Part shown: positions 5,868 through 36,150 of the stretch, one piece after another | Layout of the letters: the number at the start of each line of letters is the position of its first letter | Numbering within the stretch: position 1 is the stretch's first letter | From: an uncultured Clostridium sp. | GTDB taxonomy: Bacteria; Bacillota; Clostridia; Lachnospirales; Lachnospiraceae | Direction of reading: 5' to 3' | Length of the DNA stretch: 38,716 bases | Assembly: GCA_947644195.1 (NCBI GenBank) | Contig: CANRZB010000037.1 | Span: 1 to 38,716 of the forward strand | The notes under the pieces: generated by a model | Databases searched by the model: none | Told to the model about the DNA's origin: nothing | The model's input: the letters and a program-made list of their open reading frames with translations, nothing else | Made by a program: the position numbers and the translations under genes

Positions 5868-5888
5868 CAGTACAATGTGGAGGATGAA

Positions 5889-7545: not shown

Positions 7546-7592
7546 AGGTATAAAACATTTGGATCTGTCAAATATAATAGTAGAGGAAATCG

Positions 7593-8670: not shown

Positions 8671-8697
8671 AAAGATTCGGGCTGCACAGGGAAATCA

Positions 8698-20393: not shown

Positions 20394-20402
20394 ATTATAA
20401 CA
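20394..20402 (-). promoter_or_regulatory. Extended -10 promoter of the AAA ATPase
   Basis: On the minus strand the sequence reads TGTTATAAT, a perfect extended -10 element. A -35 box 17 bp upstream is poor (TTTCTC), as expected for an extended -10 promoter. It is 77 bp from the chosen start codon. Confidence 0.5.
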
Positions 20403-20437
20403 TATGCCGTTGAAAAGAGAAATAAGAGGAGGACAAG

Positions 20438-20545
20438 ATGAGAGATGTTTTTTTCAGACAAAAGGAATCCTCTTTTTGGATTCGGGATGCTCCGATTCTA
20501 TCAGAAACTGCAAATGATGATAGAAAGATTGGAGTGTGCAAATGA
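20438..20545 (+). CDS. 35-aa leader ORF coupled to the recombinase
   Basis: A strong AGAGGAGG site (20425-20432) precedes ATG 20438. The frame runs 35 codons (MRDVFFRQKESSFW at the start, DDRKIGVCK at the end) and stops at TGA 20543-20545, overlapping the recombinase ATG by 4 nt (ATGA). This is a classic translational-coupling arrangement. The peptide resembles nothing I know; it may act only in cis by controlling recombinase translation. Confidence 0.5.
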   Translation: MRDVFFRQKESSFWIRDAPILSETANDDRKIGVCK

Positions 20546-21399
20546 AGAATTTAACAGATTACAAGAGCTATTTAATTGGTCAAGAGTTATCAGATGCTAC
20601 AATTACAGTATATATGCGGGTTGCAAAGGAGTTTCTTCATTTTGTAGGACAGAGGAACATAGATAAATGGATCGTTTTGGATTATAAAAAGAAAATGGAA
20701 GATTCCGCTCTCGCAGTGACAACCATGAATCAGCATATTATTGCGGTCAACCGTTATCTCCGTTTTTGTGGATATTCGGAATGTGCGGTAAAGACTTACC
20801 GGATCCAAAGACAGACCAGCTTGTCGAACGTCATTGATGATGAGGATTATCAGAAAATGTTGGTCTATGTGATGGAAAAACAGGATGACAAATATTATGC
20901 CATTATGAAAACACTGGCGCTTACAGGAATTCGGGTCAGTGAATTAGCGTATCTTACCGTTAGCAATATCGCAAAAGGCCATATTGTGGTACGCAATAAA
21001 GGGAAAGTCAGGGAAATATTATTGCCGGATTGCCTCGTTACCATTTTGAAAGAGTTTTGTGTAAAGTATGGGATCACGGAGGGCTGTATCTTCCGGGGAA
21101 ATGCTGGAAAACCGATTAGCCGCGAAGCGGTATGGGAAAAAATCAATCGCATTGCTGCCAAAGCAGGCATAGATCGGAAGAAGGCGCATCCTCACAGCTT
21201 TCGTCATTATTTTGCCCTTTTGTATCTCAAGAAATACTCCAATATGTTTGAACTCGCAGATATATTGGGGCATGCCAGTTTGGAAACGACTCGTATTTAT
21301 GCGATGGCAACGGTGGAGGATAAACGGAAGAGGATGGAGCAGTTGGATTTTTGTGGAGTTGACGGAATACAATATTCTGATAAGAAAGTCAAGAGGTAA
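20542..21399 (+). CDS. Tyrosine recombinase, likely the invertase of the adjacent switch
   Basis: A 285-aa XerC/D-like tyrosine recombinase. Residues 1-85 form the SAM-like core-binding domain and 95-280 the catalytic domain with R131 (TGIRVSE), H218 and R221 (HSFRH), H244 (LGHASLETT) and nucleophile Y253. A perfect inverted repeat overlaps its last codons (residues about 275-281) and recurs 200 bp downstream, so it most likely inverts this segment. As written it ends KKVKR; after inversion the frame would run on for 46 residues. GGAG sits 7 nt before ATG 20542, coupled to a 35-aa ORF. Its regulation may depend on the switch. Confidence 0.9.
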   Translation: MKNLTDYKSYLIGQELSDATITVYMRVAKEFLHFVGQRNIDKWIVLDYKKKMEDSALAVTTMNQHIIAVNRYLRFCGYSECAVKTYRIQRQTSLSNVIDDEDYQKMLVYVMEKQDDKYYAIMKTLALTGIRVSELAYLTVSNIAKGHIVVRNKGKVREILLPDCLVTILKEFCVKYGITEGCIFRGNAGKPISREAVWEKINRIAAKAGIDRKKAHPHSFRHYFALLYLKKYSNMFELADILGHASLETTRIYAMATVEDKRKRMEQLDFCGVDGIQYSDKKVKR

Positions 21400-21604
21400 A
21401 AGAAAAAAATTTTTAATTAAATTCAAGTGAAATCAAAGGATATTTACATGTTAGTAGTAAAGATATTGTAAATATCCTTTTTGATTTTAAATAGATCATT
21501 TATTTCTTGGATAGAATTATTCCCGCCAATGCTGTGTTTTTCGTCTATCATAAAAAATACACAAATATAAGATAGAAAAATTCTCTTATCAGAATATTGT
21601 ATTC
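21365..21604. repeat. Candidate 240-bp invertible switch with 21-bp inverted repeats
   Basis: The left copy at 21365-21385 begins GAATACAATATTCTG and is perfectly repeated in reverse at 21584-21604. Each copy contains the near-symmetric core AGAATATTGTATTC. Flanks diverge immediately on both sides. The left copy lies in the recombinase 3' end; the right one lies 41 bp before the first gene of a long operon. This is the layout of known invertons controlled by tyrosine recombinases in gut Firmicutes. Orientation-dependent promoter and terminator signals are described separately. Confidence 0.8.
21435..21484 (+). terminator. Rightward terminator inside the invertible segment
   Basis: AAAGGATATTTAC (21435-21447) and GTAAATATCCTTT (21468-21480) form a perfect 13-bp stem followed by TTGATTTT after a run of five T. 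In the present orientation it ends recombinase transcripts before the operon. Reversed, its tail would be TTTGATTTC, a poorer terminator. Confidence 0.75.
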
Positions 21605-21605
21605 T
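21583..21605 (+). promoter_or_regulatory. Half promoter at the right repeat, completed only by inversion
   Basis: TATTCT (21600-21605) matches -10 at its three most conserved bases (T, A and final T). As written the -35 position holds AAAATT (21577-21582). The minus strand at 21392-21387 reads TTGACT; inversion would put it exactly 17 bp before TATTCT, backed by the A/T tract now at 21400-21422 as an UP-like element. Transcription would start about 35 nt before ATG 21646. Confidence 0.6.
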
Positions 21606-21645
21606 GTAAATGCAACGATAATCAGTACGAGAAAGGAGGTACAAA

Positions 21646-22245
21646 ATGAGTGATTTGAATGCATCAGTAGGCATTGATTTTTCCCTGTTGGGAACCAATC
21701 TGCATGCGGCCTACGAAAGAAAAGGGGAGGACGGATACGCAGTTCTGCTGCTTCCTACCGAACAAAATCCAAACAATGGAGTGTCAATTAAAAATGTCAT
21801 TGATGATATTAAAAAGCTGGTCACTGGCGTTGACAGCAGCGTGAAAACAGATGGCATGGACGAAGACCTGATGGATGGCGTTAATAGCAGTTTGGCGATT
21901 ACTGAAGATCAGGGGAAAGAAGGCAAAACAGGATTAGAAAATCTGATGGTAAAACTTCAGATGGCCTATCTGTATATCCGCAAGGTTCCAAACCAGGAAT
22001 CTCAATTGGAATATGCGTTCCAGTTACAGGTCATTGCCAAGGACGTAATTCCAAAAGAAATCCAGAGTTTGGTGGATGTGGAGAATGTTTCCATCTCGGT
22101 ATGGAATACCGGCAGACAAAAGATTCTGGACAAAATGTCGCTCGTGACAATTGACGAGTATATTGGCATTGCAGAAAAGCCGGAAGCAGGAACGGAAGCT
22201 GGTTCTGAACCAGAAAAGAAACCGGAAGCAGAGAATCCGCAGTAG
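21646..22245 (+). CDS. Unknown 199-aa protein, first gene of the switched operon
   Basis: I do not recognise this protein. It has no signal peptide or membrane helix. Residues 1-165 look like a compact alpha/beta or beta domain (GIDFSLLGTNLHAAYERKG; YLYIRKVPNQ; FQLQVIAKDV) and the last 25 residues are a Pro/Glu/Ala/Lys-rich tail. An ideal AAAGGAGGT lies 6 nt before the ATG. It is the first gene after the putative invertible promoter and 52 bp before the 1059-aa gene, so it is likely a partner or chaperone of that large protein. Confidence 0.7.
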   Translation: MSDLNASVGIDFSLLGTNLHAAYERKGEDGYAVLLLPTEQNPNNGVSIKNVIDDIKKLVTGVDSSVKTDGMDEDLMDGVNSSLAITEDQGKEGKTGLENLMVKLQMAYLYIRKVPNQESQLEYAFQLQVIAKDVIPKEIQSLVDVENVSISVWNTGRQKILDKMSLVTIDEYIGIAEKPEAGTEAGSEPEKKPEAENPQ

Positions 22246-22297
22246 TACGAGCAAGAAGTTTGTAGGTGAAATGTTACCAGAAGGGAGGCAGGTCCAT

Positions 22298-25200
22298 ATG
22301 AAACAGAAGGAACTATCTTATCACATAGCAGCAGAAGGAACGGTTTTACAGTATCCCGCCAGAATTATGCTGGGTAGCCATGACGGACAGTTCCTGTTCT
22401 GCGGCAAGATTCAGTGGAGTGGGGAAAAATTGTCGGATTCTTTGGAAGTCATTGGCGATACGATGGCAGATCGCTTCCGCAGTTATGTGGATGACCTGCT
22501 TCCCTCCCAACTTCCGGGAGAACTAACCGTATATTATGAAAACGAATTGCTGGAATTTGGTTTCCAGGAGAGCAGCCTGTATTTCAAATTGGCGAAAGCC
22601 GGAGATAGCAGTGCATTACTGTTTGCATTTCAGATACCAAAAGAACGGACGACGGGGCAGGCGTGTTCTACTTTTCAGAATGTATTAGAGAAAGTAGCTG
22701 ACTTTTTTGGGGTCCGTGAGTTTTTATTCTATGCACAAACGGGAAATCATTGGATACTGCCACGGTTAGCGCCAGATTCTATCGGTGTAGAACGGGTTCC
22801 GGCTGAAATTAGAAACTGTAGTTTTATGACATATTCCCATATTGTGATGGAGGGTGACAGTGTTTTTGTAAAAGCAGTGAGAACATTGTTTGGATTGAAA
22901 GAAACGGAAGTCTTTCTGGGAGCAGGCAAGCAGCAATTTCTCTGTATGATCCGTATTCCGTCCTTTCAGACAGGGTTTATGGAAAGCAGTGATATGTATA
23001 TGTTGATGGAACTGGGAAGCCGTCCGGCATTTGTGATTAAGGGATCCTTTACCTTTCCGGCAGTTCCGGGGTTAAAGTTTACTGTGGACTGTGGGGTGCA
23101 GGAAAACGAATTTGCACTGGAAGCATTTGCGCAAACGACAGAGCCGGTTCCTCTTTTTAGTATTTTTTCTATTGGGGATACCTGTCTGATGATTCGGGTA
23201 TCCAGTGGAATTACTTTTGGGTTGTACACCAATCTGTATATTCGGAAGATTCGATTGTTTGGAGCGGTAATTTTGCGGGTACAGGGCAGTGCGGCAGTAC
23301 CGGAATTATTGTCGGCGGCCGTCAGCGATTTATCCATCCCTATTTTAATGGATAATCTGTTGGGGACCCATCTCAATGGGATTGAAGTTTTTGATTTTAT
23401 CCGCATAAAAGGACTACCTTTTCAAGCGCTTTCCCCTTTTGGTTCTGCGATGGTCCAAAATCGGGACATCGAGGGGATTGTAGCGCATTTTAATGCGGAA
23501 GTGAAGTCTTCCTCCCTGCATTTGGATGCGTCGCAGGTACAGATCACTAAATTTGGGGATGGCGTGGATGTGACCGATTTAAAACGGATGCGCCACTATT
23601 ATATTGATGCTTCCGGTCGTTTGAAACTGATGGCGCAGTTTTATTATGCGACCCAGAACACCAGGTTGGGCAATTATACGGTGGAGCGGGGAATCTTTAT
23701 CTGTGCCGTGATAGAACTCTTTGGTAAAGCCTTTGAAGTGCTGTTTTCGTTTCGGGAAGGGGAGGGACTGCTCGCCTATGCCCGGATACCGGAAATTAAT
23801 TTGGGATTTTTGCAGATTGGTGCATCGGAGTTTAGCCGTAACAGCAGCTCGGCGCTTCCGATTGCGCAGGATAGTGTGATGGCTCAATTTGTGAATCCAC
23901 AGAGTGACGGTATGATCTTTTTCCTCTCTGCCGGCAAAAGGGAAATCTCTTTCTATTTTGACGGAAGGGTAGATTTCTTGTCTCTTTTCCATGTAGATAC
24001 CAGAATTATCTTTTGTAAGGGTTTGATTTCGCTGGATATGAGGACGATCTGGTTGGGGATTTTTCAAATTACCTTGCAGCTTCGGGTAGCATATCAAAAT
24101 TTTTCTTCCGGGCAGTTTGCATTTTGCCTGACAGTTGATACCTCTCCGTTGACAGAAAAATTAACCACCGTGATCCAGGGGATTGATCAGGCGGTGCAGA
24201 AACTGCGGAATAAAATCAATGACGCAACCAGGGAGATCGATCGGGCGCAGGCACATGTCAATGAGTTATATCGAGAGATTGACCGTTTTAATTGGAAGAT
24301 AGAGAACTGTAAACGGGAAATTCGCGAAGCAAGCTGGTGGGAAAAAGTCTTTGTAGCGATCGCAAAAGGTATTGAAATTGGGGCTTATGAAGTGGCGAAG
24401 GTCGGAATCTATGCTGCTATTGGTGTGGCGACGGCGGCGCTTCAGGTAGCGAAGAAAGTGGTGGAGTTCTCAGGAAAGCTGGGAGAAGGTGTTCTAAAAG
24501 CAGTAAAGGGTGTGGTTCAGGGGGCAATGTCCCTGTTCTATCTGAATTATATCCGACTGTCTGCCCATGCGAGCGCCAGCCGGTATGGGAACAATGAAAT
24601 CAGTTTTAAGGCAGAGATTGGATTTGTGGCGCTGGGGAAGACCTATCAACTGAAGGAAAGTATTACAAGCGGGCAATTGAAGAGTTCCAAGGTAGGAGTT
24701 TTTGACCGGACGATCCATCAAAGCCTGGACAAGGATTTAAAGGATATAGAAAATGGAGCGTTTCGCAGCAATTGGCAGAAATACCGACACGAAAACTATA
24801 CTACGATGCAACACTGCAAGAGGCTCGACCAGGCAAAAACGCATCTTGATTCCTCCGTGGCAATGATGACCCGGATGCAGAAGATTTATCAGGATGAGTT
24901 TCAGACACCGATGGAAGAATTTGATGCGATGAATGTATCCCTTATGGATGCGCTCGATCAGGCAGGGAATACCCTGGATACCGGTGCCAGGGCAGGTGAT
25001 GTATCACAGCTTGCCAATGCTATGGGCGGCTTAAAAAGAAGTGTGAATTATCAGGAGAAACAGGGGGTTTTCCGGGATGGGGAACTGGCAGAGACCAAGG
25101 AATTAATTGCTGAATATGATGAGGCAAGGCTGCTTTACGATAAAGTGGTGTCCAGTGCCGAGAGAATACAGAAACAGAAAGACAAGCTGGAAAAACATCA

Positions 25201-25477
25201 GGAAAAGGCAAGAGCACAGACCAGCCAGTCCTATGGAGAGTGCCTGATGCATGGAACCGAGGGGGATATGGCAGGCGTCCTGACGCAGGTGGAAAAAGAG
25301 ATGTATCAATGTTTTCCAGTGGACCGGAGTGGAACAGAGTTTATTAATCTGTCCAGGGAACCATTGATCCAGGAATGTTTTGTGGAGGCGGAAAAAGAGC
25401 TGGGGGTTACCCCGGCGGCGGAATTGCAGGCAATGCGTAGCAGAAGCCGGAAAGGTAGTTATCGAAGCAGATTGTAA
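22298..25477 (+). CDS. Unknown 1059-aa beta-rich protein with an amphipathic Gly/Ala segment
   Basis: Unrecognised large protein without a signal peptide. Residues 1-610 appear as a succession of beta-rich domains with repeated patterns such as FLFCGKIQ, FVIKGSFTFPA and FYFDGRVDFLSLFHV. Residues about 620-680 are a likely coiled coil (IDQAVQKLRNKINDATREI), and about 684-750 form a long Gly/Ala/Val-rich amphipathic helix region (YAAIGVATAALQVAKKVVEF) that could insert into membranes. The last 300 residues are again helical and charged, ending in a Ser/Arg tail. GGGAGG precedes ATG 22298. Operon context with protease, lysin and DUF2589 genes suggests a structural or pore-like component, which is inference only. 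Confidence 0.72.
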   Translation: MKQKELSYHIAAEGTVLQYPARIMLGSHDGQFLFCGKIQWSGEKLSDSLEVIGDTMADRFRSYVDDLLPSQLPGELTVYYENELLEFGFQESSLYFKLAKAGDSSALLFAFQIPKERTTGQACSTFQNVLEKVADFFGVREFLFYAQTGNHWILPRLAPDSIGVERVPAEIRNCSFMTYSHIVMEGDSVFVKAVRTLFGLKETEVFLGAGKQQFLCMIRIPSFQTGFMESSDMYMLMELGSRPAFVIKGSFTFPAVPGLKFTVDCGVQENEFALEAFAQTTEPVPLFSIFSIGDTCLMIRVSSGITFGLYTNLYIRKIRLFGAVILRVQGSAAVPELLSAAVSDLSIPILMDNLLGTHLNGIEVFDFIRIKGLPFQALSPFGSAMVQNRDIEGIVAHFNAEVKSSSLHLDASQVQITKFGDGVDVTDLKRMRHYYIDASGRLKLMAQFYYATQNTRLGNYTVERGIFICAVIELFGKAFEVLFSFREGEGLLAYARIPEINLGFLQIGASEFSRNSSSALPIAQDSVMAQFVNPQSDGMIFFLSAGKREISFYFDGRVDFLSLFHVDTRIIFCKGLISLDMRTIWLGIFQITLQLRVAYQNFSSGQFAFCLTVDTSPLTEKLTTVIQGIDQAVQKLRNKINDATREIDRAQAHVNELYREIDRFNWKIENCKREIREASWWEKVFVAIAKGIEIGAYEVAKVGIYAAIGVATAALQVAKKVVEFSGKLGEGVLKAVKGVVQGAMSLFYLNYIRLSAHASASRYGNNEISFKAEIGFVALGKTYQLKESITSGQLKSSKVGVFDRTIHQSLDKDLKDIENGAFRSNWQKYRHENYTTMQHCKRLDQAKTHLDSSVAMMTRMQKIYQDEFQTPMEEFDAMNVSLMDALDQAGNTLDTGARAGDVSQLANAMGGLKRSVNYQEKQGVFRDGELAETKELIAEYDEARLLYDKVVSSAERIQKQKDKLEKHQEKARAQTSQSYGECLMHGTEGDMAGVLTQVEKEMYQCFPVDRSGTEFINLSREPLIQECFVEAEKELGVTPAAELQAMRSRSRKGSYRSRL

Positions 25478-25492: not shown

Positions 25493-27385
25493 ATGGAACA
25501 GAAAAAACAGAAAAACAGTAAGCCTTTGTGGATGGGTCTGTTGGGGGTTCTGGCAGCCGGGGCAGTCATTACCACGACGAATGGTTTGCAGCGGGAAGGA
25601 GTCCGGGTCAGGCAGTATTCGGAACTGGCGTCCAAAGCATATTGTACGGTGCTGGTATATATGGATGGCAGTGACCTGGAAAGTGATTATGGAGCGGCGG
25701 CAGAAGATTTGGAGGAGATGGAACAGGCGGTCCGGGATTCGGGAATGGATGCCGATACCCTGCGGGTGGTCGTAGAAGCAGGGGGGGCGTCCCGGTGGCA
25801 ATATGAACCTATGCAGGACAAGGAATACGGAAGATTTTGTATTTCTCAGGAAGGAATACAGCACGAGGAAACGTTGGAAGTCCGAAATATGGGCAGTGCA
25901 GATACCCTGACAGACTTCATCAATTATGGTGTGCAGTCCTATCCGGCAGAGCATTACGGCCTGGTGTTGTGGAATCATGGCGCCGGACAGATTGAGGGAT
26001 TTGGCAAGGATTACCATTTTGAAGACGCGTCTCTGCCACTGGCGGAGATCGGGGATGCCCTGGAAGCTTCGGCGCAGAAATCGGCATTTGATTTTATTAG
26101 CCTGGACGCCTGCCTGATGGGAAATCTGGAATTGGTATCTGTGCTGAAAGATAAAACGAATTATCTCATTGCTTCGGAGGAATTGGAACCGCAGAATGGC
26201 TATGATTATAGCTGGCTAAAGGCAGTCGGAACGGAGAGGAAAGAACAGACGGGGGCTCTGGGAAAGACGATTGGGGAGGCGATGTTGGCATCCTATGAGA
26301 CATCCTATGCAGATCAGGAATATAAGCTGACGCTCAGTCTGATTGATATGAAAGCCTATCCGGCGTTTCACGATATCTTTCATCAAATGGTGGAAAATGT
26401 CCTGGAACATGTGGACGAGGAGTTATGCCAGAAGTTTGGTCAGGTTCGTAAAGAATTGCAAGGGTTTGGCAGCAGGCAGGAGGGAATGGCGGCGGAGATC
26501 ATTGATGTCATGGATTTGCTGGAGGCTATGGGAAGCATACAGGAGAACCAGGATCTATGCAGGCAGGCAGAACAGCGGGTGCAGGAACTGGTACTCCGAA
26601 AAGTGACGAGAGGTTATTCGGCGGAACCCTGTGGTTTAAGTATCTATCTGCCGAGCGGATCGAATGAGTGGCTGCAGGACGATATCGCTGTCTATGACGG
26701 GATTTCTTTCTGCGAGACTTACCGGAATTTATTACATCAGTATCGGGACTATCTCATCAAAGAAAATAAAATGGAATGGCGGACTCCTTCCAGGAAAAAG
26801 AAATCCATTCGACTGGAACTAGAGCCGGAGCAAATGGATGAAATTGCTGGGGCGTATCTGTCTGCCTTTTGCCAGACAGAAGATGAAGTTTCCTATCTGC
26901 TCAGTACAGACAGTGATGTGACAATCCATCGAAAGGGGTTTCTGGAATCCACACCGGCAGAAACATACTGGGGATTACAGGGGCAGGTTCTCTGTCTGAT
27001 GGAGACACTGCATACAGATCAATTTACGGAGTACCATGCCCCCGTTTTATATAACGAGGAACTCTGTATTATGGTGATTGGATTTGATGAGGATCATCCA
27101 GATGGAAAAATCCAGACGATTATGCCGGTGGAAGTTTCCAAGCAGGAGTATGAGATTCGGGAGGGAGATCGTATTGTACCGTTGTATCCCTTAAAGGATG
27201 CGGTGGAGAAGTCGGAGAAAATTTATGAAGATTCCTATTACATGGGCGATCCGATTTCGATTGCCAGCCTGGAGAGGGGGGATGCGCTGCTGGAGCAGAT
27301 TTCGGTAAAGCAGGATGCCTGTTCTTATGGTTTTCTGATCCAGGACACAAGACAGCAGTTACATGATACCGTATTGGCAGAATAA
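25493..27385 (+). CDS. Clostripain-like C11 cysteine protease, membrane-anchored
   Basis: A 630-aa clostripain-family (C11) peptidase, expected to cut after Arg or Lys. The N terminus has a basic start then a hydrophobic segment (residues about 12-30), either anchor or signal. The caspase-like fold at about 45-430 contains YMDGSDLE, catalytic H162 in LWNHGAG and C207 in SLDACLMG. The C-terminal 200 residues form a beta-rich domain that I cannot name. AGGAGGG lies ahead of the ATG, and the gene follows the 1059-aa gene by 15 bp, so it is co-translated. It may process the large operon proteins or attack outside targets. Confidence 0.88.
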   Translation: MEQKKQKNSKPLWMGLLGVLAAGAVITTTNGLQREGVRVRQYSELASKAYCTVLVYMDGSDLESDYGAAAEDLEEMEQAVRDSGMDADTLRVVVEAGGASRWQYEPMQDKEYGRFCISQEGIQHEETLEVRNMGSADTLTDFINYGVQSYPAEHYGLVLWNHGAGQIEGFGKDYHFEDASLPLAEIGDALEASAQKSAFDFISLDACLMGNLELVSVLKDKTNYLIASEELEPQNGYDYSWLKAVGTERKEQTGALGKTIGEAMLASYETSYADQEYKLTLSLIDMKAYPAFHDIFHQMVENVLEHVDEELCQKFGQVRKELQGFGSRQEGMAAEIIDVMDLLEAMGSIQENQDLCRQAEQRVQELVLRKVTRGYSAEPCGLSIYLPSGSNEWLQDDIAVYDGISFCETYRNLLHQYRDYLIKENKMEWRTPSRKKKSIRLELEPEQMDEIAGAYLSAFCQTEDEVSYLLSTDSDVTIHRKGFLESTPAETYWGLQGQVLCLMETLHTDQFTEYHAPVLYNEELCIMVIGFDEDHPDGKIQTIMPVEVSKQEYEIREGDRIVPLYPLKDAVEKSEKIYEDSYYMGDPISIASLERGDALLEQISVKQDACSYGFLIQDTRQQLHDTVLAE

Positions 27386-27469: not shown

Positions 27470-28174
27470 ATGTGTGATAGTTTAGGAAAGAGAGTGAGCA
27501 GAAAGGTAAAGCGGGATGGATTTATCGAAGAGGAAGAATTTGAACAGATCCTGATAGAGGAATACGGTCTCACGGAAGAAGATTTGGAGGACGATGTCGC
27601 CCCCCATGGAAGTGCGGGATCCTTTCATGTCGATAGGGCTGATATTCTGCTACCGGACGGGCAGAGCGTGACCCTGTGTGTAGATAGGAATAGCGATTGT
27701 AATGTCCTGTTGTATCTGGAAAATCAGTTGGATATCCCTACGGTATCCGAGCTGTGGAAAAACAAAGAGAATCAGAAAGCGATCGGCGCATTGATCCGTT
27801 ATCCCGGAGGATGGCATGAGTGGTTGATGGTGGCATCGCTTCCCCTGTTGAAAGCAATGGAAATTCCCCTGGCATGGATTTGGGAATTTCGCACGGAAAC
27901 GGCAGAGTGTCAATTTTATTATCAGGAAGGAGACAGATATTATCCTGGAATTCATGGCGGTGAGGGAAGTACCAGGATGCATAATGATTTATTTCGCTGT
28001 TATTCCAGTGTTTATTTCGAATTTTATCAGGGGCAGTGCAGAGCAGGAGCAGATGCGGCGGGAAGAATTCGGAGCAATCTGCTGAAGTTTGCAGGAGAGC
28101 ATTTTGATGAAGAAATTATGATCCCAGATGCTCTGAGCAGCCTGATTGACCGTTTGGGATCATATGACAGATAA
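27470..28174 (+). CDS. Unknown 234-aa soluble protein
   Basis: I do not recognise it. There is no signal or transmembrane segment. Residues 1-60 are acidic and helical, followed by a mixed alpha/beta part with several Trp and Tyr residues (YPGGWHEWLMVASLP, IPLAWIWEFRTE, YYQEGDRYYPGIHG). A typical AGGAGG ribosome site precedes the ATG. The 84-bp gap after the protease gene contains only a weak 7-bp inverted pair. Its place between the protease and the lysin-like gene suggests the same system. Confidence 0.65.
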   Translation: MCDSLGKRVSRKVKRDGFIEEEEFEQILIEEYGLTEEDLEDDVAPHGSAGSFHVDRADILLPDGQSVTLCVDRNSDCNVLLYLENQLDIPTVSELWKNKENQKAIGALIRYPGGWHEWLMVASLPLLKAMEIPLAWIWEFRTETAECQFYYQEGDRYYPGIHGGEGSTRMHNDLFRCYSSVYFEFYQGQCRAGADAAGRIRSNLLKFAGEHFDEEIMIPDALSSLIDRLGSYDR

Positions 28175-28239
28175 ATCATCCGGTGGGTAGAGTTGGCAGA
28201 CAGCCTGACCGGATACCAAAGAGAAAGGAAGTGGCAAAT

Positions 28240-28746
28240 ATGGGAGTAATGATAGGACATGCATCAATTGATGAGAGAGGCAGGGCGCGTGGCGGCCAGG
28301 CGGGAGACCAGACGGGCAGGGAGGTATGTATCCGTTCCTGGTATAACCATGGATGGAATAAAGTCATCCGCCCGAAAAAAGAAGAGGAGGCGGCAAAAAT
28401 TGCTAAGGCAATGAAAGCAGCATGCAAGAATGACAACATCGGATATGATCAGAACCAGCGCACCACATTGTACGAATTGGCAAAGTCCAAAAAGTGGGAC
28501 ATTGCAGCGGTAAATAAAAAATGTGAAACAGATTGCTCTGCTTTGGTGGCAGTCTGCGTCAATGCGGCAGGAATTAAAGTATCCGGTTCCATTTATACCG
28601 GAAATGAAGCCGCAGCGTTGGAACAGACGGGACATTTTAAGGTACTGACTGACGCCAAGTACACCAAAAGCGATAAATTGTTGAAACGCGGAGACATTCT
28701 GTTAAAAGAGGGAAGCCATACAGCAATTGTGGTGTCTGTAGGATAG
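28240..28746 (+). CDS. NlpC/P60-like lysin without signal peptide
   Basis: A 168-aa papain-fold cell-wall hydrolase resembling phage endolysin catalytic domains. The start IGHASIDERGRARGG plus QAGDQTG and SWYNHGW are typical of a phage-type group in Clostridia. The catalytic Cys is C99 in TDCSALVAVC and the His is H160 in GSHTAIVVS. No signal peptide or wall-binding domain exists, so export would need lysis, a holin-like path or the operon's own machinery. ATG 28240 is chosen for GAAAGGAAG upstream. Its company is not phage structural genes, which makes its location unusual. Confidence 0.75.
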   Translation: MGVMIGHASIDERGRARGGQAGDQTGREVCIRSWYNHGWNKVIRPKKEEEAAKIAKAMKAACKNDNIGYDQNQRTTLYELAKSKKWDIAAVNKKCETDCSALVAVCVNAAGIKVSGSIYTGNEAAALEQTGHFKVLTDAKYTKSDKLLKRGDILLKEGSHTAIVVSVG

Positions 28747-28787: not shown

Positions 28788-29660
28788 ATGCGTGGAACGA
28801 CAGAGGAAGAGATGGGAATTTCCTTGGAAGACAAGGAAGCGCATGAGGACGGGGAGGCAGAATACCAGGACAATCATTTTATCCGGCTGGAAGAGTTAGT
28901 TTATGCTCCGCTCCACGCTCTGGTAACCTCCAATCAGCGGCTTCGCTCCGAGGTGTTGCAAACGGTGCGCAGCATGGCGACTGTCAAACAGCAGGGACGG
29001 GAAGAGATTGTGCAGCTCAACCATATGAATATCGCCTATGACCAGATTCGGAATGAAGAGGAGGATCATTGTCGGGTAGATAAGCTGCAAATGCAGCTTC
29101 CCCTGCTCTCCCTGGTTCCTTTGAATACATTATCTATTGAGAAAGCGGAGATTCAATTTGCAGCAGAGGTATGTGTGGATGGGGAAGCGGAGGAGAATGT
29201 TGTCAAGGCGAGGATTTGTTCTCCAGAGCAGAGAGACAGTGATTTTCTGCCAAAGGTGCAATATCATTTACAGGTGGGCGCACTTCCGGCTTCGGAGGGG
29301 ATTCTGCGCCTAACGGATCTGCTCAGTGCGAACCAGGTTGTGCAGCAGACGGATACGACTCCAGTGGGAGTGCAGGGAAAAACAGGCACGGATGAGCAGA
29401 AACAGATCTGGAAAGAGATTGACCGCTTGAGAGCAAAAGTCAAGAAATTGAAACAGCTTTACCAAAAAGTGCAGCATATGTTGGAGGAACAGGAAAGGAT
29501 CTATCAGATCAGCAAGGACGGTTTTCAGGAAAATGCTTATGATTATGACCGGGATAAATATGCCATGGTAAAGACCAATATTATGAACAGGATTCTAAAA
29601 TACCAAACGCGTATCATGGATCTGGAAATTGCCTACGGACTGGATCATGATTACGAGTAA
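28788..29660 (+). CDS. DUF2589-related protein with C-terminal coiled coil
   Basis: A 290-aa protein whose middle (residues about 25-195) fits DUF2589: LEELVYAPLHALVTSNQRL for the N-terminal helix, the block LQMQLPLLSLVPLNTLSIEKAEI matching the family PLL-x-x-VP-hydrophobic pattern (written here in part), then a beta strand with acidic residues. Residues about 200-290 form a coiled coil (IDRLRAKVKKLKQLYQKVQ). No signal is present. DUF2589 function is unknown. AAAGGAGG precedes the ATG. It is followed 17 bp later by a second, simpler DUF2589 gene, and the two probably assemble together. Confidence 0.72.
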   Translation: MRGTTEEEMGISLEDKEAHEDGEAEYQDNHFIRLEELVYAPLHALVTSNQRLRSEVLQTVRSMATVKQQGREEIVQLNHMNIAYDQIRNEEEDHCRVDKLQMQLPLLSLVPLNTLSIEKAEIQFAAEVCVDGEAEENVVKARICSPEQRDSDFLPKVQYHLQVGALPASEGILRLTDLLSANQVVQQTDTTPVGVQGKTGTDEQKQIWKEIDRLRAKVKKLKQLYQKVQHMLEEQERIYQISKDGFQENAYDYDRDKYAMVKTNIMNRILKYQTRIMDLEIAYGLDHDYE

Positions 29661-29677: not shown

Positions 29678-30271
29678 ATGGCTGCAGAGCAGTTTACTGG
29701 GATGGATATGGGACAGTTAGTGAGCGCCCCGCTGGTGGCAGCGTGCGATGCACAGATGCAGCTGGCACGGTCTACAGCCGGGTTCATACAGCAGGTGGGC
29801 GTGGACGAACAGGGAAAAACACGGACTGCCAGTTTCCTGTACCAGCAGGAAACCGAAGGAGGGGAACGGCAGGAGATGCAGGTGGAGGTTCCTCTGCTTG
29901 CTGTGGTTCCCTTGCCAAATTTACAGATTGATGAGGTAGGGCTTACCTTTGATATGGAAGTACGGCAGAGTGAGCAGAAGGAATCGGAAATGCAGGCAGA
30001 AGGAAATTTGGAAAGTGGTTTGGGGTTTGGACCTGCCAAGGTATCCATGCGAGGAACCGTCAGTTCGCACAGTCATCATACCAGGGCTTCGGATTATTCT
30101 GCGAAATATCACTTTGAAATTCGTGCCGCCAATCATGGGACGCCCGAAGCGATAGAGCGGGTGCGGGATCTGATGCTGGCTGGAATCGTGCCAGATGATA
30201 GGAAAAACATGCGGGAGGACAAGCGAAAGAATATGGCGCCGTCGGAGCAAAAAAAGCAGGAAAAGAATTAA
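29678..30271 (+). CDS. DUF2589 protein
   Basis: A 197-aa member of DUF2589 with clear family pattern: LVSAPLVAACDAQMQLARS at the start, VGVDEQGKTRTASFLYQ, then VPLLAVVPLPNLQIDEVGLTF. The middle is acidic and the C terminus is Lys-rich (DDRKNMREDKRKNM). A His/Ser stretch (SSHSHHTRAS) lies about residues 128-137. It has no signal peptide. It is the cleaner of the two adjacent DUF2589 paralogues and has GGAGGG just before ATG. The family has no known activity; pairing here suggests a hetero-oligomer. Confidence 0.82.
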   Translation: MAAEQFTGMDMGQLVSAPLVAACDAQMQLARSTAGFIQQVGVDEQGKTRTASFLYQQETEGGERQEMQVEVPLLAVVPLPNLQIDEVGLTFDMEVRQSEQKESEMQAEGNLESGLGFGPAKVSMRGTVSSHSHHTRASDYSAKYHFEIRAANHGTPEAIERVRDLMLAGIVPDDRKNMREDKRKNMAPSEQKKQEKN

Positions 30272-30338: not shown

Positions 30339-31073
30339 ATGACAATAAAGGAAAACAGAGATGGGCAGAAATTAACGATCACTCTGACCGGAAGATTAGA
30401 TACCACGACTGCCCCCGCTTTGGAGGAACTTGTCAAGGCAAGGTTGGATGGAATCAGGGAACTGTTCTTTGATATGAAAGGGTTGGAGTATCTCTCTTCC
30501 GCTGGATTGCGGGTATTGCTTCTGGCGCAAAAGGTTATGAACCGGCAGGGGAATATGGCAGTCTGCAATGTGGGGGAGACCGTTATGGAGGTTTTTCATA
30601 TTACAGGTTTTGATGATATTTTAACCATACTGGCACCTCAGGAGGATGCGGAGGTTTTTTCGATCGAGGCAAAGACGGAAAACCTGGGGCAGGTGCTGGA
30701 ATTTATTCGAGGTCAATTGGAGAAACAGGATTGTCCAGTCCGTATTTTGGGACAGATAGAAATCGCTGCAGAAGAGATCTTCGTCAATATTTCCCGCTAT
30801 GCATATGAGACAGGGGTGGGCGATGCAGGAATCCGGGTAGAGGTAGAGCAAGATCCACTGCGTGTGGCGATTACCTTTATGGATCACGGCGTTCCCTATG
30901 ATCCGTTGCAGAAAGAAGACCCGGATACGGCACTTTCCGCAGAGGATCGGCAGATTGGTGGCCTGGGCATCTATATGGTGAAAAAAAGCATGGATCAGGT
31001 CTGCTATGAGTACCAGGATGGTAAAAATATTTTAACCATACGCAAGAAGATATCGGATACGGGGAAGCGGTAG
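30339..31073 (+). CDS. STAS-HATPase fusion: anti-anti-sigma joined to RsbW-like kinase
   Basis: A 244-aa protein joining two normally separate partner-switching parts. Residues 1-100 are a STAS domain (LTGRLDTTTAP; YLSSAGLRVLL) with the phosphorylatable Ser at 53 or 54. Residues about 115-240 are an HATPase of the RsbW/SpoIIAB class with E145, E146 and N150 in the N box, DHGVPYDP at 182-189 and GGLGIYMVKK near 207. All ATP and Mg residues look intact. It would phosphorylate a STAS protein, perhaps itself, and the SpoIIE-type phosphatase downstream would reverse it. There is no sigma factor in the operon, so the regulated target is unclear. Confidence 0.88.
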   Translation: MTIKENRDGQKLTITLTGRLDTTTAPALEELVKARLDGIRELFFDMKGLEYLSSAGLRVLLLAQKVMNRQGNMAVCNVGETVMEVFHITGFDDILTILAPQEDAEVFSIEAKTENLGQVLEFIRGQLEKQDCPVRILGQIEIAAEEIFVNISRYAYETGVGDAGIRVEVEQDPLRVAITFMDHGVPYDPLQKEDPDTALSAEDRQIGGLGIYMVKKSMDQVCYEYQDGKNILTIRKKISDTGKR

Positions 31074-31112
31074 GAGAAAAAGAAAGGTATGTTACGTAGG
31101 AAAGGAACGGAT

Positions 31113-32609
31113 ATGGAAGAAAAGCTGATGCAGTGGATTCGGGAAAATGCAGATACAGAGTTTGGAAAAGAGCATCAATTCTGTAAGATTCAAAGTTTGG
31201 CAGATTATCAACACTATGTACCTCTTTCTGACTATTCGGATTATGCAGATGCCGTACAGCGGATGTATGAGGGAAACAGCAATATCCTTACCGCTTATCC
31301 ATTATATGGTTTTGTCATGACCAGCGGCAGTATGGGAAAACCAAAGAGGATCCCTTTGACAGTAAAAGGATTGGAACCCTTTGCCAGGGCATATGGAGAT
31401 ATCATGCGTCAGGTAGAGGGAATGGCAGGAAAACATCTGCACTTGTCGGTATTTCCTTCCATAGAAAGTGAACTGGGAAATGAGGGGATGATTAGCACCG
31501 CAGCATATCGTTTTCTCTATGAGCAGGGCGAAATACATCTGGATCAATATGTGGGCGGGAAAGATTTTCTGTTTACTGGGGAAGTGGGAGATCATTTCTA
31601 TGTAAAACTGTGGATGGCTTTGCAGGAAGAAAATCTCCTTTCCATTCAGAGTATTTTTCTGTACGACACATTATTGTTCTTTGGTTACTTGGAGGAACAC
31701 GGCATGGAAATTTTGTCTGCCATGGAGAAGGGAGTTATTCCACCCGAAATCCAGCTATCTGAAAAAATAAAAGCCCGGCTCCTGACAGAATTTCGTCCAT
31801 CCATGCAGAGGATTTATTTTTTAAAAGAGGAATTCTGTCAGGGGTTTGAAGCGATAGCTCCGCGAATTTGGAAAAGACTGCATATGATCAGTGGCATTGG
31901 TGGCGATTTTTTTCGTTACCGGGAAAAATTACTGCGAAGATATACGGGAGAGATTCCATGGCAATATTTTATGTATGGGTTATCCGAATGTTTGGCCGGC
32001 TATGCGGAGGGACTGGAGAATCCAAGTTATACATTGATACCGGAGAATGGATATTACGAATTTTTAGACCTGGATACCGGGATTGTCTATCCTATGGGAG
32101 AAGGCAGCATTCATAAAATCTATGAACTTGTTCTTACGAATCGTTCTGGTTTCTATCGTTATCGCTTTGGCGATTTGGTCAAGATTAAGAGATATCAGAG
32201 GGGAATACCGATACTGGAAATCATAGGGAGATCTCAACAGGTTTTGAACATAGCGGGAGAAAAGATAGATGCAGTCATGTTGGAAGCTGCGGTTTTGCGC
32301 TTTGCAGAGAAACAGGAGATGGTCTTTCATGATTATGCAGTGACGGTGGAGGAATCCCGGTTACCAATGGGATATCTGCTGTATTTAGAGCCGGAAAGAG
32401 GCCCGGTTCGGGAATCCGTACAGGAGATGTCACGTACCTTTGATCAGATTCTCAGGGAAATAAATTCCGATTATGATGATCTGCGGAATCGGAAGAAACT
32501 ATCTATGCCCCGAATCTGCTGTCTGCGGAGAGGAGAACTGGAGCACAGGAGGAAGTATCGGAATACGGCACAGAACAAACCGGGACAGTCGGTTCATTGG
32601 AACATTTGA
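31113..32609 (+). CDS. Bacterial GH3-family acyl-adenylating enzyme
   Basis: A 498-aa GH3 (auxin-responsive) family protein. Plant GH3 enzymes adenylate a carboxylic acid and join it to an amino acid; bacterial members are mostly uncharacterised. The ATP P-loop is TSGSMGKPKRIPLT at about 69-83, followed by FMYGLSECLAGYAEG with the conserved Glu, and LVLTNRSGFYRYRFGDLVKI near 345-365. The C-terminal lid ends KPGQSVHW. ATG 31113 has AAAGGA at good distance; ATG 31089 is possible. Next to a MATE exporter it could make an acyl-amino acid or related conjugate that is exported; this is inference. Confidence 0.87.
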   Translation: MEEKLMQWIRENADTEFGKEHQFCKIQSLADYQHYVPLSDYSDYADAVQRMYEGNSNILTAYPLYGFVMTSGSMGKPKRIPLTVKGLEPFARAYGDIMRQVEGMAGKHLHLSVFPSIESELGNEGMISTAAYRFLYEQGEIHLDQYVGGKDFLFTGEVGDHFYVKLWMALQEENLLSIQSIFLYDTLLFFGYLEEHGMEILSAMEKGVIPPEIQLSEKIKARLLTEFRPSMQRIYFLKEEFCQGFEAIAPRIWKRLHMISGIGGDFFRYREKLLRRYTGEIPWQYFMYGLSECLAGYAEGLENPSYTLIPENGYYEFLDLDTGIVYPMGEGSIHKIYELVLTNRSGFYRYRFGDLVKIKRYQRGIPILEIIGRSQQVLNIAGEKIDAVMLEAAVLRFAEKQEMVFHDYAVTVEESRLPMGYLLYLEPERGPVRESVQEMSRTFDQILREINSDYDDLRNRKKLSMPRICCLRRGELEHRRKYRNTAQNKPGQSVHWNI

Positions 32610-32705
32610 TGTGACAGTTGAAGAAGACCGGAAGATCTTGGTGTATCACTGGTTGATGTATCTGAATAATTGGAACGGAGCAGAGGAGAAAGTAGGGAGA
32701 GTTCA

Positions 32706-34430
32706 ATGGAAGAGGGAAACCACATTTTAAAGGTTACCTATCAAAAAGCATTACTGCCTAATATTTTGATGACTCTAGGAGGCACGATTCCTGTTTTTAC
32801 AGACAGTCTTCTGATTGGTAGAAAATTTGGAGTAGGAGGAATGGCAGCCGTAAACCAGTGCTTTGCGGTCCATTTGCTGTTATGTACATTTGGCTCGTGC
32901 GTTGCAGCCGGAGCGATGGCAGAGGCAAGTCATTTTCTGGGAAGAAACAGAACGGCAGATGCAAACAGGATTTATTGTATTTCCATAGAATGGATGCTTC
33001 TGATGGGAGTGATGATAACGGTCATTGGGAGCTGGTTATCCCATTCTATGGCAGTTTTTTGGAGCTCCCCGGACACCACGGTATTTGTGGAGCGTTATCT
33101 TAAAATTGTTTTTGCTAGCAGCCTATGGAAACTATTGCTGTATGTTCCGGTATATTTCCTTCGTTTGCAAGGCCGGATAAAGCGCATGGCAGGGATGACT
33201 TTTTTTATGGCGTTATTGCATATTGTTTTGGACTATGTTTTTTTGTATGTGCTCGATTTGGGGATGGAGGGAGCGGCGTATGCTTCTATGATTGCGACGG
33301 CATCTGCAGTTTTGCTGGGTTTCTGTTTCCTCATGGGTCGGGGAAGTGGTTTTTATTTTCATCCGGTCAGGTTAGATGGGAAGACACTATGGAAAGTAAT
33401 GCAGAATGGATCTCCGGTTGCCGCAAATAATTTTTTGGCGGCGGTTCGCCTTATCTTGTTAGGTAGTATTATGAAGCAGGCAGGAGGCAGTGCGTTGGTG
33501 GCAGTGTTTGCGATTACTAATAATGTAAATGAATGTTTGGCTTGTATTCAGGTTGGAATTCCTCAGACTGGCATGACCATGTTAGGGATTTTAGCCGGAG
33601 AAAAGGACGTCGGAGCTATCAGGATGATACAGAAGATGCAGATGAAATATGGAATATGGTATTCCATGGGGTTGGCAGGGATAATTGCAGTTTTTTCCAG
33701 GCAGATCGGTGGGATCTTTGGTAATCCATCAAATGTTCGTCTGGCTTTGCTGCTATTTGCATTGGGGATTGTTCCGGCTACGGTCAATAGTGTTATGAGT
33801 TATTTTTATTTTGCCTTGAAAAGAACCAGACAGGCAGTTGGCCTTATTTTTCTTAGGGTTCTTTTTTTTGCGGTGAGTTTTGCATGGTTGTTATCTGATT
33901 GCGGAGATGGGATATTTTTGTTTTACCTGTTATCGGAATTGGCAACTACATTTTGCTGGTTGCTGACTGACTGGTGGTTGTATCAGCATCACTCTGGAGG
34001 ATCCCTGTTTTATTTGCTGAATGAAGGCTCGATAAAGAATGGGCGGAGTATTAGTTTTACGGTTTCCTGTGATCCGAAATCTATTTGCAATGCGGCTTCT
34101 CGGATCGGAGAATTTTGCCAGGATTATGGTTTTACATCCGGACAGCTAAATGGTATTAGTTTGGCGCTGGAAGAGATTCTGGTGATTATTTCTGAGAAAT
34201 CATTAAACTGGCAGGGGACGATTGATGTAAGAGTATTGAGTAAGGGTGAAGGCGGAATTCTCCGTTTTCGCTCTGCTGGAAAATATTATAATCCCTTGGA
34301 GTTGGCAGACACGGACAGCCTTGATTACTTGGGGATTCGGATGATTACCGGATTGGCAGAAAGGATAGAGTATCAAAGTACGCTGGGACTGAACACGTTA
34401 CTGGTAGTTATAGAAAAGAGGGATTTATGA
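32706..34430 (+). CDS. MATE-family transporter fused to a degenerate HATPase domain
   Basis: Residues 1-435 form a 12-helix MATE efflux protein (TDSLLIGRKFGVGGMAAVN; GMTMLGILAGEKD). The remaining about 135 residues are an RsbW-like HATPase fold. Compared with the STAS-HATPase product, its N-box Asn is replaced by I494 (EEILVII instead of EEIFVNI), the DxGxP motif reads SAGKYYNP, and GLGI reads YLGI. Thus ATP binding is probably lost and the domain may be a docking or sensor part. The 574-aa length is far above the usual 450 aa. GGGAGAG precedes ATG 32706. The stop overlaps the next gene by 4 bp. Confidence 0.85.
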   Translation: MEEGNHILKVTYQKALLPNILMTLGGTIPVFTDSLLIGRKFGVGGMAAVNQCFAVHLLLCTFGSCVAAGAMAEASHFLGRNRTADANRIYCISIEWMLLMGVMITVIGSWLSHSMAVFWSSPDTTVFVERYLKIVFASSLWKLLLYVPVYFLRLQGRIKRMAGMTFFMALLHIVLDYVFLYVLDLGMEGAAYASMIATASAVLLGFCFLMGRGSGFYFHPVRLDGKTLWKVMQNGSPVAANNFLAAVRLILLGSIMKQAGGSALVAVFAITNNVNECLACIQVGIPQTGMTMLGILAGEKDVGAIRMIQKMQMKYGIWYSMGLAGIIAVFSRQIGGIFGNPSNVRLALLLFALGIVPATVNSVMSYFYFALKRTRQAVGLIFLRVLFFAVSFAWLLSDCGDGIFLFYLLSELATTFCWLLTDWWLYQHHSGGSLFYLLNEGSIKNGRSISFTVSCDPKSICNAASRIGEFCQDYGFTSGQLNGISLALEEILVIISEKSLNWQGTIDVRVLSKGEGGILRFRSAGKYYNPLELADTDSLDYLGIRMITGLAERIEYQSTLGLNTLLVVIEKRDL

Positions 34431-36085
34431 AAAATAAAAGAAAACTAGTGCGAAAATTTATTTTGGGTTTTGTAATAGTAGGAATGGTAATTAGTGGGAT
34501 CAGTATTGTCATTGGTGTTCATGGATTTGGGGAATCCATCAAAAAACAATATAACGATACGGCATATGATATCGCTGAAACGGTAGTGACAATGCTATCA
34601 CAGGAGGAGCTGGCGGCCTATGCCGAACTCTTGCAAACAAAGGATGAGGATATTTTTCGGTCAGTGATGGAGTCGGAGCGGTATCAGGAAATATGGCAGC
34701 AAATGGATCATTTGCGTGCCAGTATGGGGGCAAACGATATATTTATCGCAGTCGTGGATCGGGAGCAATTGAAGGAAGAAGCTATGGCAGCAGAAGATTG
34801 GGCGCCTCTGTACTATCTGTTTGATACCTTTCATCAAGTAGAGGATTCCTATGCATTGGGCAATACGGGCCCCTTTAATCCGAAATATGCGAAAGAGATC
34901 AATCTGCAGTTGGAGACATATTGCCGGACGTCTAATTACTATATTTCCAGGAGCCAATATGGTTATAATACATCGGCCGTGCTTCCCGTGCGGGTACAGG
35001 AACGGGATCTGCCAATCCTGATATGTGTCGAAATACCAATGTCTACGCTACAGAGTGCGATTTTGGAATTATCGTTCCATACTCTGGGATCGATTGTGGT
35101 TGCAATGGCAGTCATTATTTTGCTGTTTGTGTATTATCTGTATCGCACTGTTATTCGGCCGATTGATATTATTGCAGAAGAGACAGAGAACTTTGGTGTT
35201 TCCGGCACCCAGCTTTCGAAACGGTTATGGACGATCCAGACGGGAGATGAGTTGCAGGGCCTGGCAGAATCTGTCCTGAAAATGGAACAGGGTATTTTGG
35301 ATTATGTACAGAATATAATGGCTGTGACCGCTGAAAAAGAGCGTATCAGTGCGGAATTAAATGTAGCCACAGAGATTCAGGCAGATATGCTGCCAAGGAT
35401 ATTCCCGGCATTTCCAGACAGAAGAGAGTTTGATATCTATGCATCTATGACTCCGGCGAAAGAGGTAGGTGGGGATTTTTATGATTTCTTTCTGGTGGAT
35501 GAAGATCATTTGGTTATTGTGATAGGAGATGTGTCGGGGAAAGGAGTTCCTGCTGCTCTGTATATGGTAATTGCAAAAACACTACTGAAAAACCAGGTAG
35601 GGAATTGTCTTTCTCCAAAGGAAATTTTGGAAGAGGTCAATGGGCAGCTATGCGAGAACAACCAATCCGATATGTTTGTGACGGTATGGCTGGGAATTAT
35701 GGAAATTTCCACAGGTAAAATACTTGCGGCTAATGCAGGCCATGAATTCCCGGCAGTACGGAAAGGGGATGGCGGATTTTGTCTGTTGCAGGATAAGCAT
35801 GGCTTCGTGCTCGGTGGAATGGAGGGATCAAAATATACGGAATATGCTTTTGATATCCAGGAAGGAGAAAGTTTATGTATCTATACGGATGGTGTGCCGG
35901 AGGCTACCAATGCGGAGAATGAGTTGTTTGGGACCGATCGGATGCTGGAGGCCCTGAATGAAGACCAGCATGCGGACCCACAGAGAATGGTTCAGCAGGT
36001 ACAGGATCGTATTGATGAATTTGTCGGGCAGGCTCCGCAGTTTGACGATCTTACTATGCTGGTTTTGGTGAGAAATCAAAGCTGA
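34427..36085 (+). CDS. Membrane RsbU/SpoIIE-type PP2C phosphatase
   Basis: A 552-aa protein: first membrane helix at about 10-33, an outer sensor domain to about 205, a second helix at about 215-240, a HAMP linker, a short coiled coil, then a SpoIIE-class PP2C phosphatase (about 300-550). Metal-binding motifs are complete: GGDFYDF, IGDVSGKG, YTDGVPEA and DDLTML. It should dephosphorylate a STAS protein, here most likely the STAS-HATPase product, on an extracellular cue, and thereby drive a partner switch. Start ATG overlaps the MATE stop (ATGA), so the two are translationally coupled. It is the last gene of the long operon. Confidence 0.9.
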   Translation: MKNKRKLVRKFILGFVIVGMVISGISIVIGVHGFGESIKKQYNDTAYDIAETVVTMLSQEELAAYAELLQTKDEDIFRSVMESERYQEIWQQMDHLRASMGANDIFIAVVDREQLKEEAMAAEDWAPLYYLFDTFHQVEDSYALGNTGPFNPKYAKEINLQLETYCRTSNYYISRSQYGYNTSAVLPVRVQERDLPILICVEIPMSTLQSAILELSFHTLGSIVVAMAVIILLFVYYLYRTVIRPIDIIAEETENFGVSGTQLSKRLWTIQTGDELQGLAESVLKMEQGILDYVQNIMAVTAEKERISAELNVATEIQADMLPRIFPAFPDRREFDIYASMTPAKEVGGDFYDFFLVDEDHLVIVIGDVSGKGVPAALYMVIAKTLLKNQVGNCLSPKEILEEVNGQLCENNQSDMFVTVWLGIMEISTGKILAANAGHEFPAVRKGDGGFCLLQDKHGFVLGGMEGSKYTEYAFDIQEGESLCIYTDGVPEATNAENELFGTDRMLEALNEDQHADPQRMVQQVQDRIDEFVGQAPQFDDLTMLVLVRNQS

Positions 36086-36121: not shown

Positions 36122-36150
36122 TTGACTTGGCTGTCGGGAAATCATATAAT
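36122..36150 (+). promoter_or_regulatory. Near-consensus sigma-A promoter for the two-component pair
   Basis: TTGACT (36122-36127) and a perfect TATAAT (36145-36150) are 17 bp apart, 27 bp before the response-regulator ATG. It separates this pair from the preceding operon, although no terminator is visible between them. Confidence 0.85.

What the first reader, a model, noticed from the sequence alone, without database searches (positions are those of the whole stretch)
21365..21604. Candidate invertible promoter switch controlling a 14-kb operon
The sequence shows a perfect 21-bp inverted repeat around a 198-bp spacer, directly after a tyrosine recombinase and 41 bp before an 11-gene operon. 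As written, the spacer has a rightward terminator and the right repeat has only a -10-like TATTCT. Inversion would bring TTGACT to exactly 17 bp upstream, with an A/T-rich tract behind it. So one orientation should be OFF (the one here) and the other ON. Tyrosine-recombinase invertons are established in gut bacteria; a promoter split across the repeat, plus an orientation-dependent terminator, would be a double lock.
Basis: partly seen in the sequence, partly recalled or inferred. Interest (0 to 1): 0.92.

Follow-up and report, generated by a model that had tools for sequence, protein, structure and literature searches.

The report
Default-OFF invertible split-promoter switch
A short DNA segment next to what is probably its own flipping enzyme looks like an on/off switch: flipping it should join two halves of a promoter and turn on eleven genes, and the same design recurs in relatives, where every clear case is drawn in the off position.

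Summary
A perfect 21-bp inverted repeat (21365-21385 / 21584-21604, 198-bp spacer) overlaps the end of a tyrosine recombinase gene and precedes an 11-gene operon by 41 bp, far beyond chance. In-silico inversion forms TTGACT-17-TATTCT facing the operon.

New evidence: the design recurs in five other genera. In 21 such switches (window plus 20) a -35 of at least 5/6 sits 17 bp from the repeat's -10 at the operon-distal end in 20, and at the operon-proximal end in none; the operon-side -10 is better in 14, equal in 5, worse in 2. A promoter kept pointing away from its operon makes sense if it is sometimes turned round. Sixteen of these switches precede DUF2589 operons.

Against: no inverted copy of this locus was found, no window-type switch is drawn ON, and the window's promoter score alone is not significant (9% of shuffles). 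One pair of related species, outside the window's group, appears inverted.

Most likely a rarely-ON tyrosine-recombinase promoter inverton whose promoter is split at the recombination site: a new variant of a known kind.

The parts
20542..21399 (+). Tyrosine recombinase (285 aa from ATG 20542; ORF opens at GTG 20536)
   Evidence: Pfam Phage_integrase 5.8e-25; XerA/PsrA-like matches; R, K, HxxR, H, Y residues readable in the sequence (motif recalled)
21365..21385 (.). Left inverted repeat, inside the recombinase 3' end
21386..21583 (.). 198-bp spacer, proposed invertible segment
21387..21392 (-). -35 hexamer TTGACT, pointing away from the operon as written; lands at 21577-21582 (+) after inversion
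21435..21480 (.). 14-bp-stem hairpin, terminator-like, both strands
   Evidence: not reported by the scan
21584..21604 (.). Right inverted repeat
21600..21605 (+). -10 hexamer TATTCT, five bases in the repeat and the last T outside
21632..21639 (+). Shine-Dalgarno-like AAAGGAGG of op1
   Evidence: sequence printed
21646..22245 (+). op1, 199 aa, no family match
   Evidence: match in its own genome only, 1 of 61 searched
22298..25477 (+). op2, 1059 aa, no Pfam match; weak PHROG matches only
25493..27385 (+). op3, clostripain family (Peptidase_C11)
27470..28174 (+). op4, 234 aa; 33% identical homologue in the operon of G857
28183..28746 (+). op5, endolysin-like domain (ELLD)
28788..29660 (+). op6, DUF2589
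29678..30271 (+). op7, DUF2589
30339..31073 (+). op8, STAS + HATPase_c_2 (anti-sigma partner-switching type)
31089..32609 (+). op9, GH3 family acyl-adenylate synthetase-like
32670..34430 (+). op10, MatE family transporter
34427..36085 (+). op11, SpoIIE-type phosphatase; proposed end of the switched operon
36122..36150 (+). TTGACT-17-TATAAT promoter-like site before the LytTR/GHKL pair
   Evidence: best of 33 sites (11 of 12 matches); 31.6 sites expected by chance in that region

Best explanation
The recombinase (20542-21399) inverts the 198-bp segment at the two 21-bp sites. As written the segment is OFF: the only good -35 lies at the recombinase end and points away from the operon, and the operon side has a -10 without a -35. 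Inversion carries the -35 to 17 bp from the fixed operon-side -10, making TTGACT-N17-TATTCT with transcription predicted to start about 35 nt before op1. The promoter is thus split at the recombination site: the -35 is mobile and the -10 straddles the repeat border. The spacer hairpin mainly shields the operon from recombinase read-through. ON is rare. Shown: sequence anatomy, conservation, and the orientation pattern in relatives. Inferred: that inversion happens here, that this recombinase does it, and that transcription follows.
For: Anatomy. Of 84 recombinase places examined (window included), 60 have an inverted repeat just downstream; 58 of 84 score at least 14, against 3 of 1680 shuffled stretches. 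Fifteen of the 24 misses have contigs that end within 450 bp. In 21 window-type switches the -35 (at least 5/6) is at the distal end in 20 (exact TTGACA in 18) and at the proximal end in 0; the operon-side -10 is better in 14, equal in 5, worse in 2 (sign test 0.004). Two G811 switches with no recombinase match in about 20 kb around them keep the design, so it is not just antisense control of the recombinase. Pattern TTGACA-N10-AATATCGTATT in 138 genomes: all 14 exact matches are such switches. Best promoter scores exceed those of shuffled spacers (mean 10.4 against 7.8). G810/G814: spacers align inverted (z 8.5) rather than the same way (z 2.8). Clostridial tyrosine-recombinase invertons are measured elsewhere (PMC11892184, passages).
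Against: No inverted copy of this locus: one assembly, two repeat copies; no match in viral contigs. None of the 21 window-type switches is drawn ON (one, G811:C10, is undecided by score), so inversion is not shown in the window's own group. G810/G814 lies in the other recombinase clade and is a single pair: the BLAST match is 41 nt at 78% (E 2.6e-4), and in the all-pairs local screen all 20 pairs above threshold favoured the same orientation. The window's ON score is reached by 9% of shuffled spacers. A chance-level site, CTGATA-17-TATATT, also lies in the segment. Two relatives have the better -10 on the distal side. Of 13 one-mismatch pattern matches only 1 is a switch; the reversed control gave 2 hits.
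Confidence: 0.76

Rival explanations
1. Fixed or decayed element: the repeats are recombinase-binding operators or remains of a switch that no longer inverts, and the operon is silent or read from elsewhere.
For: No window-type switch is drawn ON; four related species with 77-89% similar spacers share one orientation; all 20 alignable spacer pairs in the local screen are in the same orientation; no inverted copy found.
Against: Both arms, the distal -35 and the better operon-side -10 are kept although few spacers still align; recombinase genes are intact; the wider family has ON calls and one apparently inverted pair.
Confidence: 0.16
2. Attenuator switch like C. difficile cwpV: the promoter is upstream (the recombinase's) and inversion only changes termination in the spacer.
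For: A spacer hairpin is present in the window, and the recombinase runs codirectionally into the operon.
Against: The hairpin folds on both strands. In 16 spacers the tail of the best stem is T-richer in the drawn direction in 8, poorer in 6, equal in 2; that script returns a best stem whatever its quality. The conserved -35/-10 halves would be unexplained.
Confidence: 0.05
3. The repeats are an attachment or transposition site of a mobile element carrying the recombinase.
For: The recombinase matches integrase families, and distant plasmid and phage homologues exist.
Against: The repeats are inverted and close together and keep their place and order across genera; plasmid and phage matches are all under 60% identity, the best listed 48% over half the protein.
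Confidence: 0.03

Closest known systems
E. coli fimE-fimS-fimA switch
   Same: Tyrosine recombinase gene directly upstream of an invertible promoter segment followed by the operon (recalled); termination behind fimE depends on orientation and biases to OFF (as told in PMC2784873, passages)
   Different: One recombinase gene here, 21-bp repeats, promoter split at the repeat instead of inside the segment (fim details partly recalled)
Clostridial inverton group 139 with invertase group 35 (PMC11892184, passages)
   Same: Clostridia (32 of 33), tyrosine recombinase beside the inverton, measured inversion
   Different: Its repeat motif is in supplements that I could not read, so whether it is this family is untested
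B. fragilis BF2766/Tsr19 with IVp-I and IVp-II (PMC4747536, passages)
   Same: Tyrosine recombinase with a local and a distant promoter switch; the local one mostly OFF in culture and in most faeces tested
   Different: Bacteroides promoter type; no split promoter in the passages seen
C. difficile RecV switches cwpV and cmr, and the pdcB switch (PMC2784873, PMC8844915, PMC9286219, passages)
   Same: Imperfect 21-bp repeats 195 bp apart at cwpV; invertible promoters at cmr and pdcB
   Different: recV is not at the switch; at cwpV the segment holds no promoter; the pdcB recombinase is unknown per the passage
PsrA of streptococci (PMC7096588, search listing and start of abstract only)
   Same: A plasmid psrA gene is 31% identical over 91%
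   Different: Per a listed abstract (PMC11709252) it inverts hsdS genes, not a promoter

Membership tests
Tyrosine-recombinase promoter inverton | Inverted repeats flanking a short segment upstream of an operon | tested here: met
Tyrosine-recombinase promoter inverton | Tyrosine recombinase that acts on the repeats, usually nearby | tested here: inconclusive
   Gene present and intact, repeats track it in relatives; activity not tested
Tyrosine-recombinase promoter inverton | Promoter faces the operon in one orientation only | tested here: met
   In silico: 6.6 as written, 9.6 inverted; same pattern in relatives. Caution: 9% of shuffles reach 9.6
Tyrosine-recombinase promoter inverton | Both orientations exist | tested here: inconclusive
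   Not at this locus or in its type; one apparent pair in the related clade, 20 of 20 other pairs same way
Tyrosine-recombinase promoter inverton | Expression depends on orientation | not testable with these tools
   no transcript data
fim-type switch | Complete promoter inside the invertible segment | tested here: not met
   Best promoter after inversion is the split one; the only other site, CTGATA-17-TATATT, begins in the right arm and scores at chance level
cwpV-type attenuator switch | Promoter outside the segment, termination in one orientation only | tested here: inconclusive
   Conserved mobile -35 speaks against and the hairpin folds both ways, but neither start site nor termination was measured

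The most novel reading that the evidence does not exclude
A recombination site that is also half a promoter: because the -10 sits in the recombinase's own site, enzyme binding and transcription would exclude each other, giving a default-OFF, rarely-ON switch. It is attached in several genera to a DUF2589, wall-hydrolase and partner-switching module or to bacteriocin-type export operons, i.e. a phase-variable antagonism or self-lysis programme that only a small fraction of cells would run.
Probability: 0.3. Interest if true: 0.7.

Novelty: new variant of a known kind. Interest (0 to 1): 0.5.

Why it matters
It would add a conserved switch design (mobile -35, fixed -10 at the recombination site) and give the uncharacterised DUF2589 operon a testable biology: population-level, mostly OFF, linked in different genomes to wall hydrolases, clostripain, nuclease-like or export genes. 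Standard cultures would miss such operons because they would be silent. The design also makes ON or OFF predictable from a single assembly.

Tried and rejected
Recombinase C-terminus swap: inversion would extend the recombinase from 287 to 329 aa, counted from GTG 20536. Not a conserved device: in 16 of 16 window-type relatives the gene stops 17 residues after the catalytic tyrosine, before the repeat; the window runs on to 32. In the wider family the repeat overlaps the gene end by 1-35 nt in 13 of 60.

Antisense control of the recombinase by the outward promoter: downgraded, because the distal -10 is usually the weaker one (TATTCC in the window) and two G811 switches have no recombinase match beside them.

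Contig breaks as a sign of inversion: of 84 places, 12 contigs end within 200 bp downstream and 4 within 200 bp upstream of the recombinase (P 0.08); suggestive only, and repeated sites would do the same.

DUF2589 is not tied to a switch everywhere: seven DUF2589 loci of the class outside the family (found, read) have no repeat core of this type, and only one has a recombinase match (22% identity).

DUF2589 fold: low-confidence model (mean pLDDT 52.8), so no fold search was run; no PDB sequence match. The genome-contig scan gave three remote matches, not used further; viral contigs gave none. Scripts mis-sliced or missed rows; one search replaces their promoter tables. One search cut promoters at the exact repeat edge; one search replaces it. 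Of the five ON calls, G208 rests on a doubtful 12-bp repeat (as does the undecided G026). G374 (16-bp spacing, other core) was left out.

Full report
WHAT IS THERE. The window is a complete contig (C37, 38,716 bases) of an unnamed 3.44-Mb genome in 82 contigs. A tyrosine recombinase (20542-21399, Pfam Phage_integrase 5.8e-25) carries in its last codons the left arm of a perfect 21-bp inverted repeat with 198 bp between the arms. 200 dinucleotide shuffles of the surrounding 3 kb gave at most 13 bp, and the genome has no third copy within 3 mismatches. The operon starts 41 bp after the right arm: 11 genes to 36085, comprising two unknowns, clostripain, an unknown, ELLD, two DUF2589, STAS-HATPase, GH3, MatE and SpoIIE. 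A LytTR/GHKL pair follows behind its own promoter-like site.

WHAT INVERSION WOULD DO. As written the best rightward promoter in the repeat-bounded region scores 6.6; after inversion TTGACT-17-TATTCT scores 9.6. That score is reached by 9% of shuffled spacers, while a -35 of at least 5/6 at the right spot is a 0.7% event. The final T of the -10 (21605) is fixed flank; at the left end the hexamer reads TATTCC, so the outward promoter in the present state is the poorer one. The consensus scan of 20400-22300 lists three promoter-like sites, all on the minus strand, fewer than the 5.2 expected by chance.

RELATIVES. Counting its own genome, recombinase relatives were found in 49 of 392 genomes of the order (E <= 1e-30) and 14 of 28 of the genus (E <= 1e-25), and in 29 of 121 of genus g39 (E <= 1e-40). 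I examined the 84 places whose DNA I had fetched, window included; the other listed places were not examined. Sixty have an inverted repeat just downstream; 58 score at least 14, against 3 of 1680 shuffled stretches. Of the 24 misses, 15 have contigs ending within 450 bp, and G358 has an imperfect repeat. Compared with their own inverted form, 43 of the 60 are OFF, 5 ON (one doubtful) and 12 undecided; shuffled spacers gave 262 OFF, 243 ON and 695 undecided of 1200. A score of at least 10 occurs in 60% of switches and 7% of controls.

TWO DESIGNS. In the recombinase tree (83 rows) nearly all rows that have a repeat but no split promoter (43 of 44) fall in one supported clade (61 rows, 100/99). 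The split-promoter rows lie outside it: 13 of 16 in a 14-row clade (95/91), while the window, G361 and G374 branch separately and the window's place is weakly supported (71/16). tabulates 21 split switches: distal -35 at least 5/6 in 20, exact in 18; proximal in 0; operon-side -10 better in 14, equal in 5, worse in 2. Besides the window (g1) they come from five genera: g39 (16 switches in 14 genomes), g44 (G361), g427 (G963), g465 (G1001) and g488 (G1024); G374 (g9) has a 16-bp variant. Few spacers still align with each other. G811 has three such switches, two of them with no recombinase match in about 20 kb, which suggests action in trans. A search for TTGACA-N10-AATATCGTATT in 138 genomes of g39 gave 27 places in 24 genomes: all 14 exact matches are these switches, and of 13 one-mismatch matches one is; the reversed control gave 2 hits.

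IS IT REALLY INVERTING. In the other recombinase clade, sister species G810 (called ON) and G814 (called OFF) appear to carry the homologous segment in opposite orientation (inverted z 8.5, same z 2.8). This is one pair, with a 41-nt BLAST match (E 2.6e-4); in the local all-pairs screen the 20 pairs above threshold all favoured the same orientation. For the window's type there is no ON form among 21 (G811:C10 undecided). So either ON is rare or inversion has been lost; conservation of both arms and of a promoter that points the wrong way favours rare ON. OFF dominance has a precedent in B. fragilis (PMC4747536, passages).

WHAT IT CONTROLS. DUF2589 genes follow 16 window-type switches (window, G235, G322, G358, G361, G899, G895, G822, G813, G901, G910, G886, G884, G857, G963 and G811:C24). 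They were not found after G374, G811:C10, G811:C3, G1001 or G1024; G883's fetched DNA is too short to tell. No locus of the other clade searched gave a DUF2589 match, though many of those loci are short. Conversely, seven DUF2589 loci elsewhere in the class have no such switch. The operon shared by most g39 genomes with the switch holds an amidase-lysozyme, two DUF2589 proteins, STAS, and SpoIIE with HATPase (some names by eye). G322 adds DUF6765 and has eCIS-type genes upstream. Other cargo: C39-peptidase ABC exporters downstream in G374 and G1024, and radical SAM, ABC exporter, subtilase and Exo_endo_phos genes in G1001. I infer secretion or antagonism; no function is shown. DUF2589 occurs in one paper of the library, and a combined search gave none.

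LITERATURE. Invertible promoters and clostridial tyrosine-recombinase invertons are known; I saw search listings and passages of six papers. I did not see the split-promoter design in the listings or in those passages; this is no search of whole texts for it, subscription papers are mostly missing, and the 2019 Science survey (named in a reference list) is not held. Hence 'new variant', with modest confidence on novelty.

Noticed in passing
L141 (G008:C181, same genus as the window), 2621-8734: A switch of the related clade, called OFF, precedes what looks like a contractile injection system operon: one of 34 first genes matches CIS_tube, which I take to be this one; spike, gp25-like and baseplate-like names for the following genes are by eye.
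   Followed up: partly
L042 (G322), 51-8863: eCIS-type genes (AAA ATPase and eCIS_core matches) lie immediately upstream of the recombinase of the DUF2589 locus.
   Followed up: partly
L184 and L185 (G811): Two switches with the same repeat core and split promoter but no recombinase match nearby, one of them before a complete DUF2589 operon; probably served in trans.
   Followed up: partly
L045 (G374), L196 (G1024), L195 (G1001): Switches upstream of bacteriocin-type export or radical-SAM operons.
   Followed up: partly
L044 (G361), 6390-7988: The switched DUF2589 operon holds a glycosyltransferase with a Pfam TcdA/TcdB-type catalytic domain match, next to a glucosaminidase; described only.
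   Followed up: no
Relatives: Of 34 first genes behind other-clade switches (34 of the 57 listed), 6 match BspA-type leucine-rich repeats; single ones match capsule, S-layer and CDP-glycerol transferase families.
   Followed up: no
20542-21399: In the inverted state the recombinase frame would read into the spacer and gain 42 residues (329 aa counted from GTG 20536).
   Followed up: yes
14385-14437 / 14494-14546: 53-nt imperfect inverted repeat (74%) with 56 nt between, between an AIM24 gene and an NB-ARC/TPR gene.
   Followed up: no
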